The notes beneath the pieces were generated by a model. The model saw only the letters and a list, made by a program, of their open reading frames with translations. It searched no databases and was not told where the DNA came from. Below are positions 19,509 to 50,226 of a stretch of DNA of 64,000 bases, one piece after another. Source of the stretch: Candidatus Limnocylindria bacterium (GTDB lineage: Bacteria; Chloroflexota; Limnocylindria; P2-11E); NCBI GenBank assembly GCA_036523395.1, contig DATDEH010000005.1, positions 1 to 64,000 on the forward strand. Reading direction: 5' to 3'. The translations under genes and the position numbers were made by a program. The stretch's first letter is position 1. Each line of letters begins with the position of its first letter.

Positions 19509-20331
19509 CGGACTTCTCGTTCATGCGGTTCGAGCGGAAGGCGAGCACGCCGGCGACGAGACCGACGACCGCGGTGACGAAGCCGCCGGCATACCCGGCG
19601 AAGTTATTGCGGCTCGGCAGCGTCGCGTTCTGCGCGTTCGGCAGCTTGTACACCTCGGGCTTGTCCATGAGCAGGAAGAAGGCGTTGAGTCCGCCGTAGA
19701 CCGTCGCGTCGCGTCCGTAGAGCTGCGCCTTCTTGTACCCGGCCGTCTGCAGCGCGGTGAGCCGCTTGTCGGCGGCCGCCTGAAGGTCATCGAGGTAGCC
19801 GAACTTGATCGACTCGGTCGGGCACGCCTTCGCGCACGCAGGCTGCATCCCGTTCTGCAGACGGTCGTAGCAGAGCGTGCACTTGTGCGCGGTGCCGGTC
19901 TTTTCGTTGAAGCCGATGACGCCGTACGGGCAGGCCGAGATGCAGTCGCGGCAACCGTTGCACACGTCCTGCTGGATGAGCACCGAGTCGTATTCGGTGC
20001 GCACGATCGCGTTCGTGGGGCAGACCTCGAGACAGCTCGCGTTCTGGCAGTGCTTGCAGACGTCGCTCATCATCAGCCAGGCCTGGCCGCCGGCGATCGG
20101 TGTCGGTGTCATGACGACGCCGTTGTTGTCTGGGATCTGCTCGATGAACTCGACATGACGCCAGTTCTGTGCGTCGAGCTGCCCCGTGTTGTCGAAGCTG
20201 TCGAGGAGGAGCTCGGGCTTGTTCCCCTCGAGCTGATTCCACTCCTTGCACGCGACCTCGCAGGCCTTGCAGCCGATGCAGATCGACGTGTCGGTGAAGA
20301 ACCCCATCGGGCGCTCCTGGAAGGCGGCCAT
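19495..20331 (-). CDS. fdhB: Formate dehydrogenase iron-sulfur (beta) subunit
   Basis: Four-cluster ferredoxin subunit, 278 residues, moving electrons from the molybdenum site to the membrane subunit. Cluster motifs in order are CIGCKACEVACKEW (from residue 18), CKHCQNASCLEVCP, CNGCRDCISACPYG and CTLCYDRLQNG with ACAKACP. The C-terminus has one hydrophobic helix (FVTAVVGLVAGVLAF) followed by positive charges, anchoring it to the membrane as in FdnH. The ATG at 20331 overlaps the fdhE stop by one base (TGATG); a second ATG eight codons in is also possible. Confidence 0.95.
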   Translation of the reverse strand: MAAFQERPMGFFTDTSICIGCKACEVACKEWNQLEGNKPELLLDSFDNTGQLDAQNWRHVEFIEQIPDNNGVVMTPTPIAGGQAWLMMSDVCKHCQNASCLEVCPTNAIVRTEYDSVLIQQDVCNGCRDCISACPYGVIGFNEKTGTAHKCTLCYDRLQNGMQPACAKACPTESIKFGYLDDLQAAADKRLTALQTAGYKKAQLYGRDATVYGGLNAFFLLMDKPEVYKLPNAQNATLPSRNNFAGYAGGFVTAVVGLVAGVLAFRSNRMNEKSDAAR

Positions 20332-21155
20332 CAGAACCCCATCAGGTTCGGCGTGAGCTTCGTGAAGCCACGCTCCGCGGCCGCGATGTCGAGCGGTATC
20401 GCGGCGATCTCATCAACGACCGGCACCGCGTGTCCTTCTAGGCGCGCGTCCACGCTGACGATGTACCGCTTGCAGCGCTCGCAGGCGTCGACGCGCAGGT
20501 ACGGGAGCTGCTGCGGGTCCGCCAGCACGACGAGCCTGCTCGACTCCGTCTCGCCGCAGGCCACGCATGTCATGCGCGGGTAGACCCATTCGTTCGCGCA
20601 ACGCGCGCATACGAGGCGCCGCTGACCCGTGACGAGCGCCTCGCCGCTGTCGGCGAACACGCTCACCTGCGGCGATCCGCCGCACGTCGGACAGAATCGC
20701 GCTTGGGGGGATTGCAGGGGGTTCTCCCCCTGCGATGAATGGGCCCTCGGCAGCGCGCTCGCAACATCGGGAAGAGCTTCCAACACCGGGCCGGTCGCCG
20801 CGCGCGCCAGGAAAACGTCGGTCCCATCCTGCGCTTCGCCGCGCAGCCAGGACGTGACCATGCGCTCGAGATCACCCTCGTGGAAGCGCAGGAGCACCGC
20901 TTCGCGCAGCGTTTCCGTTCCGGCGGTCATGACCGCGCTCATCACGTCAGGTAGCGCCGCGCGCACGACGTATGCCGGGAGGTCATCGAGGCTGGGATGA
21001 TCCGCGGCCGCGCGATCGAACGCGCGCTCCTGCGCTTCCGCGACCGCGCCGTAGAGGGCGAGCGGCTCGCGCGCGAAATCGAAGCGCTCGGCAAGCTCTG
21101 CCGCGCGGCGTCGGCGCTCCGAGTAGCTGGTGACGCGCTCAGCGACGGCGCTCAA
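20331..21155 (-). CDS. fdhE: Formate dehydrogenase accessory protein FdhE
   Basis: Rubredoxin-like maturation factor for formate dehydrogenase, 274 residues. It has the family's paired cysteine motifs: FCPTCGGSP, LVCARCANEW, CVACGETES and ACERCKRY. A stretch just before the first CxxC (SSQGENPLQSPQA) is encoded by a GC-hairpin element that also occurs upstream of serA (see repeats), so this segment is probably a late insertion tolerated as a linker. Unusually, fdhE lies between the alpha- and beta-subunit genes; it overlaps alpha by 4 bases. Confidence 0.93.
   Translation of the reverse strand: MSAVAERVTSYSERRRRAAELAERFDFAREPLALYGAVAEAQERAFDRAAADHPSLDDLPAYVVRAALPDVMSAVMTAGTETLREAVLLRFHEGDLERMVTSWLRGEAQDGTDVFLARAATGPVLEALPDVASALPRAHSSQGENPLQSPQARFCPTCGGSPQVSVFADSGEALVTGQRRLVCARCANEWVYPRMTCVACGETESSRLVVLADPQQLPYLRVDACERCKRYIVSVDARLEGHAVPVVDEIAAIPLDIAAAERGFTKLTPNLMGF
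20703..20737. repeat. GC-hairpin repeat, copy A (inside fdhE)
   Basis: On the minus strand it reads as a CGCAGGGGG arm, AGAA loop and CCCCCTGC arm, then a second run of six C. It is about 90% identical to copy B at 48615-48650 in the same orientation relative to the gene it accompanies. It lies in frame in fdhE and adds about 13 residues before the first zinc/iron CxxC. Confidence 0.75.
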
Positions 21156-27167: not shown

Positions 27168-27920
27168 TCAGCGGTAGACGGCGGGCGCGTGACGCCACGT
27201 CGCCCAGTTGTCCGCGTCGTGGCTGGTGAACACGCGCGTGAGGTCGTCGCCGGCGAGCGAGCGGATCAGCGCGAGAGACTCCTTCGCGGCGACCTGATCT
27301 ATGGCGGGAATCTCGCCGCGCTCGATGTTCTCACGCGTGAACGCGGCATCGCCGGTGAGGACGACGCGTCCGGTCTGCGCGAGATCGACGACCAATGATT
27401 GGTGCCCGGGTGCATGACCGGGAGTCGGCACGACCTCGACACCGGTCGCGACGCGCGTGCGACCGGTCACCGGGAGGTAGCGCAGCTCCGCGATGTCCCA
27501 GTACACGCCGGGGAAGTTCGGCTTCCCCTTGGCGAAGGCGAGGTGCTCGGCCTGCACGACGAACGTCGCGTGCGGGAACGCGCCGTTGTTGCCGGCGTGG
27601 TCGAAATGGAGATGGCTGTTCACGACGATCGCGACGTCGTCCGGCGTCACGCCGAGCGCCGCCAGACGAGCGACGATCGCGTCCTCCGACGCCATCATCA
27701 CCTTGAGCCCGCTCTGCGGACCGAACGTGGCGTCGGGACGTTCGACGTGAACGGGATGAAGGCCGGTGTCGAACACGACGTTGCCCTCGTTCGTCCGCAG
27801 CAGGGCCGACCATACCGGCGCGACGACGCGCTCATCACGCGCGGCACCCAGGGTCCACGGCTGGAACGCCGAGCGCGCGATCTCGACCGCGCCGGTGCGG
27901 AAGAGCATGAGCTCGATCAT
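27168..27920 (-). CDS. Metallo-beta-lactamase-fold hydrolase (lactonase-like)
   Basis: A 250-residue cytosolic MBL-fold enzyme. The metal motif HLHFDH (in VVNSHLHFDHAGN), a later His in TPGHAPGHQSL, the bridging Asp in VLTGDAAF and a final His in FTSHDADNW give the full two-metal set. The layout, with no signal peptide and an opening glycine/aspartate-poor strand, is like quorum-quenching N-acyl-homoserine lactonases and related lactonases. The substrate is unknown. It overlaps the MeaB gene by 4 bases, so it belongs to the acyl-CoA run. Confidence 0.85.
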   Translation of the reverse strand: MIELMLFRTGAVEIARSAFQPWTLGAARDERVVAPVWSALLRTNEGNVVFDTGLHPVHVERPDATFGPQSGLKVMMASEDAIVARLAALGVTPDDVAIVVNSHLHFDHAGNNGAFPHATFVVQAEHLAFAKGKPNFPGVYWDIAELRYLPVTGRTRVATGVEVVPTPGHAPGHQSLVVDLAQTGRVVLTGDAAFTRENIERGEIPAIDQVAAKESLALIRSLAGDDLTRVFTSHDADNWATWRHAPAVYR

Positions 27921-28894
27921 TCGCGCAGCAGCTCGTCCACCGCGGCGTAGGGATCGATCGCACGCTTGGCCACGCGCGCGATGGCGTTCTCTACGCGGTC
28001 CTCACCGAGACGGTCACGGAGGCGCCGCACCAGCGAATCACGCAGCAGCTCCTCGACCTCCGCGCGTGCCGATGCCCGCCGCCGCTCGTCGCGCTCGCCG
28101 CTCTCGGCGACCCACGCTCGATGTTTCGCGATCGCGGCGACGAGCTGATCGGTGCCCTCGCCCGTCGCGGCGACCGTGCGGACGATCGGCGCCTTCCACG
28201 CCGTGCGCGGCGCGCCCAGCGTCAGCATCTGCGCGAGATCGCGCACGGTCTCGTCGGCGCCGGGACGATCGGCCTTGTTCACCACGAGCACGTCGGCGAT
28301 CTCAAGCACGCCGGCTTTGATGGCCTGGATGTCATCCCCGAGCCCCGGCACGGTGACGAGGCAGACCGTGTCGGCGACGCGAACGACCTCGACCTCTTCC
28401 TGCCCGACGCCGACCGTCTCGACCAGCACCACGCCGTACCCGAGCGCATCGAGCACGTTGACGATGCGCGAGGTGGCGCGCGCGAGACCGCCGGAGTGGC
28501 CGCGGCTCGCCATGCTGCGGATGAACAGGCCCTCGTCGAGGAATCGCTCGCGCATGCGGATGCGGTCGCCGAGGATCGCTCCACCGGTGAACGGCGACGA
28601 CGGATCGACGGCGACGACCGCGACGCGGTCGGTCGTCGCGCGGTACGCGCCCGCGAGCCGGTTGACGAGCGTGCTCTTGCCACCGCCGGGCGGGCCGGTG
28701 ATGCCGACGATCTCCGCGTGACCGGTCAATGGATAGAGCGTGCGCAGCGCCTCCGCGGCACCCGGCTCGTCGTTCTCGACGACGGAGAGCAGACGCGCCG
28801 TCGAACGTTTGTCGCCGGCCCGAGCGCGCTCCAGCAGGTCGGACGCGGCGCGCGGGGGGTCTTCGGGGGGCGAGGCCCCCCGGCGGTTGGTCAC
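27917..28894 (-). CDS. meaB: MeaB/ArgK-family GTPase, B12 mutase chaperone
   Basis: G3E-type GTPase that loads and protects adenosylcobalamin in acyl-CoA mutases. The 325-residue protein has Walker A GITGPPGGGKSTLVNRLAG (about residue 56), switch residues in VAVDPSSPFTGGAILGDR, the ETVGVGQEEVEV segment, and VVNKADRPGAD for guanine recognition. The first 18 residues (RRGASPPEDPP) are encoded across a GC-hairpin element and look like an added tail. It is in the same run as the B12-binding subunit and the second mutase, and could also serve the first mutase. Confidence 0.95.
   Translation of the reverse strand: MTNRRGASPPEDPPRAASDLLERARAGDKRSTARLLSVVENDEPGAAEALRTLYPLTGHAEIVGITGPPGGGKSTLVNRLAGAYRATTDRVAVVAVDPSSPFTGGAILGDRIRMRERFLDEGLFIRSMASRGHSGGLARATSRIVNVLDALGYGVVLVETVGVGQEEVEVVRVADTVCLVTVPGLGDDIQAIKAGVLEIADVLVVNKADRPGADETVRDLAQMLTLGAPRTAWKAPIVRTVAATGEGTDQLVAAIAKHRAWVAESGERDERRRASARAEVEELLRDSLVRRLRDRLGEDRVENAIARVAKRAIDPYAAVDELLRE
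28854..28882. repeat. GC-hairpin element, copy C (5' end of meaB)
   Basis: On the minus strand: six G, loop CCTCG, six C, then GAAGA and a further six C. It shares the G-run/C-run/C-run architecture of copies A and B but not their exact sequence, and it encodes residues 4-14 of the MeaB protein. Confidence 0.5.
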
Positions 28895-48590: not shown

Positions 48591-48614
48591 GCGCGTGGGG
48601 GCGCTAGACCTCTC

Positions 48615-48650
48615 CATCGCAAGGGGAGAACCCCCTGCGACCCCCCTCAG
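48615..48650. repeat. GC-hairpin repeat, copy B (5' of serA)
   Basis: Reads on the plus strand CATCGCAAGGGGAGAACCCC then CTGCGACCCCCCTCAG: a hairpin with an AGAA loop and a second C-run. It matches copy A in fdhE, and lies in the transcribed leader between the aminotransferase stop and the serA start, where the C-runs could compete for the G-run. Confidence 0.75.
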
Positions 48651-48660
48651 GAAACCCGTT

Positions 48661-50226
48661 GTGCATGTGGCCGATCCTCTCGCCGAGGACGGCCTCGTGC
48701 TGCTCCGCGAACGGTGCGAAGTACGCACGACGACCGGGCTCACCGAGGCCGACCTCGCATCGCGCCTCCAGGACGTCGACGCGCTCATCGTCCGCAGCGA
48801 GACGAAAGTGACGGCGAAGATCTTCGACGCGGCGCCGCGCCTGGCTGTGGTGGGCCGCGCCGGCGTCGGCGTAGACAACATCGACGTTCCCGCGGCGACC
48901 GCGCATGGCGTCTACGTCGTCAACGCGCCGCTCGGGAACATCGTGTCCGCGGCGGAGCACGCGATCGCCCTCGCGCTCACTCTCCTCCGGCGCGTCGCCG
49001 AGGCCGACCGAAGCGTGCGCGCCGGCGAATGGACGCGTTCGAAGTTCATCGGTCGCGAGCTGCGTGGCAAGACGCTGGGCCTTATCGGTATCGGACGCGT
49101 CGGCTCGGAGGTGGCACGCCGCGCCGCAGGCTTCCAGATGCGCGTGATCGCGCACGATCCGTTCGCGACCGAGGCCATCGCGCGCGCCGCTGGCGCGCAG
49201 CTCGTCGAGCTTGACGAGCTCCTCCGCAGCGCAGATGTCATCTCGCTGCACACGCCGCTCACAGAGAAGACGCGCAACCTGATCAATGCCGACGCCCTCG
49301 CGAAGATGAAGCCGACGACGGTGATCGTGAACTGCGCCCGTGGTGAGGTCGTCGATCTCGCGGCTGTCGCGGCCGCGCTCGACAAGGGCACGATCGCGGG
49401 CGCTGCGCTCGACGTCTTCCCGAACGAACCGTTGCCGGCCGACTCCCCCATCCGCGGCTCGCGGAACACCGTCCTGACCCCACACATCGCCGGCTCCACG
49501 GCCGAGGCGCAGGTCAACGTCGCCGTGGATGTCGTGCAGCAGATCCTTGACGTGCTCGACGGGCGTCCCGCGCGCAACGCGGTGAATGCGCCTCGGCCGC
49601 CAGCGGATGAAGCGGGCGGCAGCGCGTGGCTACGCCTTGGCGAGCGCGTCGGCACGCTGGTGGCACAGCTGCTTGACGAGCGCCCGGCGAAACTGCAGAT
49701 CGCGTACGCCGGCAAGCTGCTCGAGATCGACGCCGAGCCGCTGCGCGCCGCAGTGGTGAAGGGACTGCTCGAGACGTTCAGCGCCGAGCGCGTGAACCTC
49801 GTGAACGCCCTTGCGATCGCGCGGTCGCGCGGCCTCGTGATCGAGGAGCGTCGCGAGACCGAGGCCGCGCGGTACAGCGCGCTCCTCACCGTTCGCGTCG
49901 GCAACACCGAGGTGGCGGGGACGCTCGTGCAGGGCGAGCCGCGCATCGTGCTCATCGACGGGTTCTGGGTCGACGTGCCGGTCGAGGGCTACCTGCTGCT
50001 CACCAAGCACCAGGACAAGCCCGGCCTCGTCGGCCGCGTCGGGACGCTGCTCGGCGAGCACGACGTGAACATCTCGTCGATGCAGGTCGGACGACTTCAC
50101 CCCCGCGGCGAGGCGCTCATGATCCTGACGCTCGACGATCCGGTGCCCGACGAGGTCCGCGCACGCATCGGCGCGTTCGCCGATGTCGATCGCGTGCGGA
50201 CCGCCCGGCTGGGGGTCTCGGGCTAG
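48661..50226 (+). CDS. serA: Phosphoglycerate dehydrogenase
   Basis: First enzyme of serine synthesis from 3-phosphoglycerate, 521 residues. The catalytic domain includes VVGRAGVGVDNIDVPAAT, the NAD motif LGLIGIGRVGSEVARR, Arg in NCARGEVVD, Glu in DVFPNEPLP and His in TPHIAGSTAEAQ. It is followed by the allosteric substrate-binding region and a C-terminal ACT domain (LLTKHQDKPGLVGRVGTLLG) that binds serine in this family. The GTG at 48661, with AGGAAA upstream, is chosen; the region before it contains the GC-hairpin repeat. Confidence 0.96.
   Translation: MHVADPLAEDGLVLLRERCEVRTTTGLTEADLASRLQDVDALIVRSETKVTAKIFDAAPRLAVVGRAGVGVDNIDVPAATAHGVYVVNAPLGNIVSAAEHAIALALTLLRRVAEADRSVRAGEWTRSKFIGRELRGKTLGLIGIGRVGSEVARRAAGFQMRVIAHDPFATEAIARAAGAQLVELDELLRSADVISLHTPLTEKTRNLINADALAKMKPTTVIVNCARGEVVDLAAVAAALDKGTIAGAALDVFPNEPLPADSPIRGSRNTVLTPHIAGSTAEAQVNVAVDVVQQILDVLDGRPARNAVNAPRPPADEAGGSAWLRLGERVGTLVAQLLDERPAKLQIAYAGKLLEIDAEPLRAAVVKGLLETFSAERVNLVNALAIARSRGLVIEERRETEAARYSALLTVRVGNTEVAGTLVQGEPRIVLIDGFWVDVPVEGYLLLTKHQDKPGLVGRVGTLLGEHDVNISSMQVGRLHPRGEALMILTLDDPVPDEVRARIGAFADVDRVRTARLGVSG

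What the first reader, a model, noticed from the sequence alone, without database searches (positions are those of the whole stretch)
20703..20737. Dispersed GC-hairpin element inserted in a coding gene
Near-identical 35-base elements lie inside fdhE (copy A) and in the serA leader (48615-48650, copy B), in the same orientation relative to the gene; a looser relative (28854-28882) forms the 5' end of meaB. Each has a G-run that can pair with either of two C-runs. The fdhE copy adds an in-frame linker. This looks like a mobile or gene-conversion-spread REP-like family with possible effect on transcription or translation.
Basis: partly seen in the sequence, partly recalled or inferred. Interest (0 to 1): 0.62.

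Follow-up and report, generated by a model that had tools for sequence, protein, structure and literature searches.

The report
Mobile GC-hairpin repeats inserted in genes
A soil Chloroflexota bacterium and its family carry a previously undescribed 35-base hairpin repeat that has copied itself around the genome, mostly into the gaps between genes but sometimes in frame inside working proteins such as FdhE, MutM, RlmN and TsaD, a behaviour best known from Rickettsia.

Summary
Copy A (20705-20739, -) lies in fdhE and copy B (48613-48647, +) lies 13 bp before serA. They are near-identical 35-bp elements, consensus TTCATCGCAGGGGGAGAACCCCCTGCAACCCCCCT: an 8-bp stem, AGAA loop and C-tail. The own genome holds 26-28 copies; the reversed-pattern control gives none. 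A covariance model finds the family in 18 of 28 genomes of the same taxonomic family, with 1-37 copies each. Among the other 149 genomes of the class it gives one weak hit.

Most G000 insertions are recent: at 14 sites including serA and fdhE the genus-mates lack the element. All 15 aligned relatives lack the 11-residue fdhE insert. Of 70 copies examined, 63 sit at gene junctions; random placement would put 84% inside coding sequence. The rest are in coding sequence, with clean 36-bp empty sites in mutM and rlmN and also tsaD in relative G017. The meaB "looser relative" is a real insertion of a different subfamily.

Best reading: a REP-like, RPE-like non-autonomous mobile palindrome. It carries neither the GTAG nor the CGTC tag, and no IS200/REP transposase (Y1_Tnp) occurs in any of the 28 genomes. 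The mobilising agent is unknown. A new family of a known kind.

The parts
20705..20739 (-). Copy A: 35-bp element inside fdhE, sense to the gene; net +33 bp (11 residues) relative to relatives, encoding ~SSQGENPLQSPQ in the linker before the zinc domain
20331..21155 (-). fdhE (FdhE_central and FdhE_C domains), host gene of copy A
48613..48647 (+). Copy B: 35-bp element in the 70-bp gap upstream of serA, 13 bp before the GTG start; absent at this site in G001-G004
48661..50226 (+). serA (D-3-phosphoglycerate dehydrogenase), downstream of copy B
28849..28887 (-). ~39-bp G6-loop-C6-spacer-C6 insertion at the meaB 5' end (hairpin core 28854-28882); same architecture, different subfamily; boundaries approximate
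27917..28894 (-). meaB, host gene of the looser relative

Best explanation
The elements belong to a lineage-restricted family of short non-autonomous mobile palindromes (REP-like). Shown: one 35-bp unit made of a NTC tag, an 8-bp GCAGGGGG/CCCCCTGC stem with a ~4-nt loop, and a short spacer plus C-run; it is dispersed, inserted recently site by site, usually at gene junctions, occasionally in frame inside proteins. Inferred: single-stranded DNA hairpins of the unit are copied or moved by a trans-acting hairpin-recognising enzyme that has not been found, or by replication-coupled template switching; selection then removes all insertions except those between a stop codon and the next ribosome-binding site, and in-frame ones in flexible linkers. 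The unit is well suited to this. In one orientation no forward frame of the consensus has a stop. In the other its end reads GCGANGAA/GAGGAG, which can replace a Shine-Dalgarno sequence. No dedicated host function is needed.
For: 18 exact cores and 0 in the control; 26 copies by covariance model. The family is found in 18/28 genomes of the taxonomic family with very uneven copy number (37, 28, 25, otherwise 0-5), and in 1 of 149 other genomes of the class, weakly. Element absent in genus-mates at 14 aligned sites including serA and fdhE; shared at one site (C43), where it is degenerate. All 15 fdhE relatives lack the insert. Clean 36-bp empty sites in mutM and rlmN, and an insert-free tsaD, in sister genomes; the inserts also stand out as unaligned segments against solved MutM, RlmN and TsaD sequences. 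7/70 copies mid-CDS against 84% expected, p ~4e-42. Antisense start codons lie a median 2.5 nt from the element against 12 nt for sense, p = 7e-4, and anti-SD pairing of those leaders is no weaker than in native genes (-5.85 against -4.3 kcal/mol). Hairpin stronger than shuffles, z = -4.6 as DNA.
Against: No mobilising enzyme identified: Y1_Tnp (PF01797) is absent from all 28 genomes of the family. No target-site duplication is evident. Tandem-gene contexts lean antisense (31 against 15), which is not strictly neutral, although loss of sense copies that disrupt the Shine-Dalgarno could explain it. These are fragmented MAGs, so an autonomous partner could be missing from the assemblies.
Confidence: 0.8

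Rival explanations
1. A cis-regulatory 5'-leader module: in antisense orientation the hairpin with its SD-like end is a translation-initiation or coupling element placed before genes to tune them.
For: About 26 copies have a start codon within 10 nt of the element's 5' end, so the element occupies the RBS; tandem-gene contexts are 31 antisense against 15 sense; ribosomal and translation genes are among the hosts (tuf leader L087, rplE end L295).
Against: Both orientations, convergent gene pairs (12) and coding insertions all occur; positions are species-specific; neighbouring genes share no obvious pathway.
Confidence: 0.12
2. Transcription terminators or mRNA-stabilising 3' hairpins (RNA-level role).
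For: Strong hairpin on both strands; many copies directly follow stop codons and 12 lie between convergent genes.
Against: No U-tract after the hairpin in either orientation; copies lie inside operons between closely spaced genes and in CDS; no Rfam match.
Confidence: 0.06
3. MITE-type remnant of a DD(E/D) transposon or another IS.
For: Small, dispersed, non-autonomous, with lineage-specific insertions.
Against: Only 35 bp, no separate terminal inverted repeats (the inverted repeat is the hairpin itself), no 2-10 bp target duplication evident at the clean empty sites; no longer parent element recovered by the models.
Confidence: 0.06
4. Chance or composition: GC-rich sequence produces such runs repeatedly.
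For: The genome is GC-rich.
Against: Zero control matches, near-identical 35-mers including loop and spacer, precise insertions against empty sites.
Confidence: 0.01

Closest known systems
REP / BIME / REPIN repeats (GTAG-tagged, RAYT-associated; PMC3733652, PMC2817692, PMC8266576)
   Same: Short (20-40 bp) imperfect palindrome, mostly extragenic, dispersed, clustered or tandem copies, uneven between related species, occasional intragenic copies.
   Different: No GTAG tetranucleotide; no tyrosine (Y1) transposase anywhere in the family; carries a C-run tail repeating the 3' arm; copy number only 1-37; tandem pairs are head-to-tail, which the paper says is rare among GTAG repeats.
CGTC-tagged repeats, including Rickettsia RPE-4/RPE-6 (PMC3733652)
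   Same: 8-9 bp stem, 4-5 nt loop, unpaired tail, four-base 5' tag ending TC, no dedicated transposase known, in-frame insertions into housekeeping and repair genes.
   Different: Tag is CNTC, not CGTC; stem base is GC, not AT; tail is RA-C4-6, not CCA; host is a high-GC Chloroflexota lineage.
Rickettsia palindromic elements in coding genes (RPE-1 and others)
   Same: Palindromes that insert in frame into conserved proteins and add a tolerated peptide.
   Different: RPE-1 is described in PMC3733652 as a longer palindromic insertion; the present unit is 35 bp (sequence relation not tested); most of its copies are extragenic.
GTAG-23 repeats of Thermomicrobium roseum (Chloroflexi; PMC3733652)
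   Same: Same phylum; inserted next to or within small GC palindromes.

Membership tests
REP (broad definition of PMC12306157) | Mostly extragenic, seldom overlapping coding regions | tested here: met
   63 of 70 copies at gene junctions; 84% mid-CDS expected at random
REP (broad definition of PMC12306157) | Palindromic stem-loop, short (~14-40 nt) | tested here: met
   35 nt, 8-bp stem, DNA z -4.6
REP (broad definition of PMC12306157) | Highly similar copies in one genome | tested here: met
   16-row alignment, mean column identity 96%
GTAG REP / REPtron | GTAG tetranucleotide at one end | tested here: not met
   5' tag is CNTC; no GTAG at either end
GTAG REP / REPtron | Associated RAYT (Y1_Tnp) gene in the lineage | tested here: not met
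   0 of 28 genomes, controls positive
CGTC REP | CGTC (or TGTC/CCTC) tag, AT at base of stem, CCA tail | tested here: not met
   Tag CNTC, stem base GC, tail RA-C4-6
RPE-like coding palindromes | In-frame insertion in conserved proteins, absent from relatives | tested here: met
   fdhE, rlmN, mutM, tsaD
RPE-like coding palindromes | Sequence homology to Rickettsia RPE | not tested
   RPE sequences were not aligned; the tag, stem-base and tail features published for RPE-4/6 (PMC3733652) do not match
MITE | Terminal inverted repeats and target-site duplication | tested here: not met
   Clean 36-bp inserts in mutM/rlmN show at most a 1-2 bp ambiguous duplication
Known RNA family | Match to an Rfam model | tested here: not met
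   0 matches in the window and in six loci
REP-like mobile element | Demonstrated excision or transposition | not testable with these tools
   Needs population sequencing or an in vitro assay

The most novel reading that the evidence does not exclude
The family is propagated without any IS200/RAYT enzyme, by a different hairpin-recognising recombinase or by replication template switching, and one end of the element doubles as a Shine-Dalgarno. It could therefore insert between a stop and a start codon inside operons and take over translation initiation of the downstream gene.
Probability: 0.3. Interest if true: 0.65.

Novelty: new member of a known kind. Interest (0 to 1): 0.42.

Why it matters
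It extends in-frame 'coding palindromes', best known from Rickettsia, to free-living high-GC Chloroflexota, with clean before/after site pairs in mutM and rlmN and insert-free relatives for tsaD and fdhE. Like CGTC repeats, it raises the open question of how such hairpins spread without a RAYT; the copy-rich and copy-poor genomes of this family make a gene-correlation search feasible. Automated annotation would misread these inserts as protein-specific loops, and misplace starts and stops at junction copies.

Tried and rejected
Y1 transposase/RAYT in the own and family genomes: none. Rfam: none. Exact family pattern in viral contigs: none. CRISPR-like array at C13 (60/62-bp spacing): rejected, because the 'spacers' are copies of the local terminator half-arm. 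Alternative pairing with the tail as a switch: -8.9 against -17.8 kcal/mol. G-run and tail lengths do correlate (rho 0.58, 44 distinct sequences), but the sequences are related, so this could reflect descent or internal duplication. A triplex reading of the mirror-like tail was considered and left as untested speculation. Similarity of the empty fdhE site (ATCGCGGGGGAGGA) to the element was noted; it makes the exact insertion boundaries ambiguous.

Full report
CHECK OF THE OBSERVATION. The two near-identical elements are present. Copy A, on the minus strand, is 20705-20739 and reads TTCATCGCAGGGGGAGAACCCCCTGCAATCCCCCC. Copy B, on the plus strand, is 48613-48647 and reads TCCATCGCAAGGGGAGAACCCCCTGCGACCCCCCT. 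The core GGGGAGAACCCC, allowing one mismatch, occurs three times in the window against 0.17 expected from shuffles. In the whole genome it occurs exactly 18 times (10 forward, 8 reverse), and the reversed control pattern occurs 0 times. Aligned copies give the consensus TTCATCGCAGGGGGAGAACCCCCTGCAACCCCCCT, 35 bp, with 96% mean column identity. A covariance model finds 26 copies in the genome; a broader one finds 28.

WHAT IT LOOKS LIKE. The unit has a 5' CNTC, then a stem GCAGGGGG/CCCCCTGC with a loop of about four bases, then RA and a run of 4-6 C. The hairpin is stronger than shuffles (DNA z -4.6, RNA z -3.8). Across 44 distinct sequences from the family the lengths of the G-run and the tail are correlated (rho 0.58), as are both with the first C-run; relatedness of the sequences weakens this as evidence for pairing. 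Genome G017 is dominated by a variant, TCGCAGGGGGCTNCGCCCCCTTCCACCCCC, of which the own genome also has several copies. In G008 and its genus the unit is followed by a second hairpin whose 7-9 bp stems differ between copies yet stay perfectly complementary, around TTC or GTTA/GATA loops.

DISTRIBUTION. Among 177 genomes of the class, 19 have hits; 18 of these are in the same taxonomic family (18 of 28 genomes there) and one weak hit lies elsewhere. Copy numbers are G017 37, G000 28, G008 25, all others 0-5. The pattern is absent from viral contigs.

INSERTION HISTORY. Flanks of 21 sites of the own genome were sought in four genus-mates in one search, and 20 sites, including fdhE, were aligned. 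The element is missing in the mates at serA, fdhE and a dozen further sites; a few more sites did not align well enough to judge. At one site (C43) it is shared, in degenerate form. At C72:80716 genome G004 carries a different subfamily at the same position. In fdhE the net difference is 33 bp. All 15 aligned FdhE relatives lack the 10-11 residues, which lie just before the zinc domain that begins near residue 154. The meaB sequence is also an insertion (about 39 bp), absent from G001, G002, G003, G004, G008 and G017; G022 has its own G-hairpin-C insertion at the same place. So 'looser relative' is right in architecture, but it is a separate subfamily.

CODING INSERTIONS ELSEWHERE. In G017 the element interrupts mutM (PSSQGGSPPSTPL), rlmN (DGGGRGQSPLRKA, antisense frame) and tsaD (FPSQGASPPSTPS, with a second unit upstream); in G008 it sits in a TatA/TatB-like protein tail (named from its sequence). 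Alignments to solved MutM and RlmN homologues leave these residues as a gap of about 12, and TsaD homologues leave residues 137-184 unaligned. Sister genomes show precise 36-bp gaps in mutM and rlmN, and no such insert in tsaD; G008 has its own GC-hairpin insertion there. The sense insertions in fdhE, tsaD and mutM use the same reading frame (x-TCG-CAG-GGG). Published work reports intragenic GTAG/CGTC repeats, many in replication and repair genes (PMC3733652).

WHERE COPIES SIT. With a gene caller trained on the window, 70 copies from three genomes were placed. Seven are well inside a CDS, where 84% would be expected at random (p ~4e-42). Tandem-gene contexts are 31 antisense and 15 sense; 12 are convergent and 4 divergent. 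In antisense copies the start codon is a median 2.5 nt from the element's end, in sense copies 12 nt (p = 7e-4), and the antisense leaders pair with the anti-SD at least as well as native leaders. Caveat: the caller gives a small bonus for SD-like sequence, and no annotation was available. I read this as selection: sense insertions must stay upstream of the native SD, while antisense ones bring a usable purine-rich end (GCGANGAA/GAGGAG).

MECHANISM. Shown: dispersion, recency, insertion precision, hairpin, junction bias, in-frame tolerance. Inferred: movement or copying as a single-stranded hairpin, and selfish or neutral maintenance. Not shown: the enzyme. IS200/IS605 and REP transposases share the Y1_Tnp domain, which is absent in all 28 family genomes while control genomes score; MAG incompleteness remains a caveat. 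Local hairpin-driven rearrangement is suggested: the three-copy C13 array repeats half of a neighbouring terminator hairpin, and the tsaD insertion begins with an inverted copy of the adjacent native coding sequence. This makes replication template switching a serious alternative to transposition.

COMPARISON. By the broad definition the family is REP-like, and in its coding insertions it works like Rickettsia palindromic elements. It is not a GTAG REP (no tag, no RAYT) and not a CGTC repeat (tag, stem base and tail differ). Untagged REP-like families are known in other bacteria (PMC3733652). I therefore call it a new member of a known kind, with unusual features: the repeated C-tail, the two-hairpin form in one genus, and the SD-compatible end.

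Noticed in passing
L067 (G000:C46:56622) and L290 (G017:C121, in tsaD): Perfect palindromes lie directly beside the element; in tsaD the palindrome GGCTCTATCAGCCGG..CCGGCTGATAGAGCC is an inverted copy of the native coding sequence, as expected from template switching.
   Followed up: partly
L064 (G000:C13:5875-6031): Three head-to-tail copies at 60/62 bp; each unit carries the left half of a terminator hairpin that exists once in relatives.
   Followed up: partly
L115/L305 (G008:C122:67579-67722) and L121 (G008:C78:136-326): Similar triplet arrays in another genus, whose units include half or all of the second hairpin.
   Followed up: partly
G008 and other genus g5 loci (L102, L113, L116, L094, L112, L107 and others): A second hairpin with compensatory 7-9 bp stems and fixed TTC or GTTA loops follows the unit, making a ~60-bp two-hairpin element.
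   Followed up: partly
L323 (G008:C35, tsaD), L296 (G022:C183, meaB), L234 (G004:C224): Independent insertions of different GC-hairpin subfamilies at the same gene positions as copies in other species, suggesting insertion hot spots.
   Followed up: partly
L087 (G000:C64:146-181): Element fills the gap directly before a gene starting MAKKKFERTKPHVNVGTI (tuf by sequence), leaving no separate Shine-Dalgarno outside the element.
   Followed up: no
L295 (G000:C118:19674): A relative overlaps the 3' end of rplE (ribosomal protein L5 by sequence) inside the ribosomal operon.
   Followed up: no
L271 (G017:C17:9333-10093): mutM of G017 carries two copies, one mid-gene and one forming its C-terminal tail GGGRGRSPLR.
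   Followed up: no
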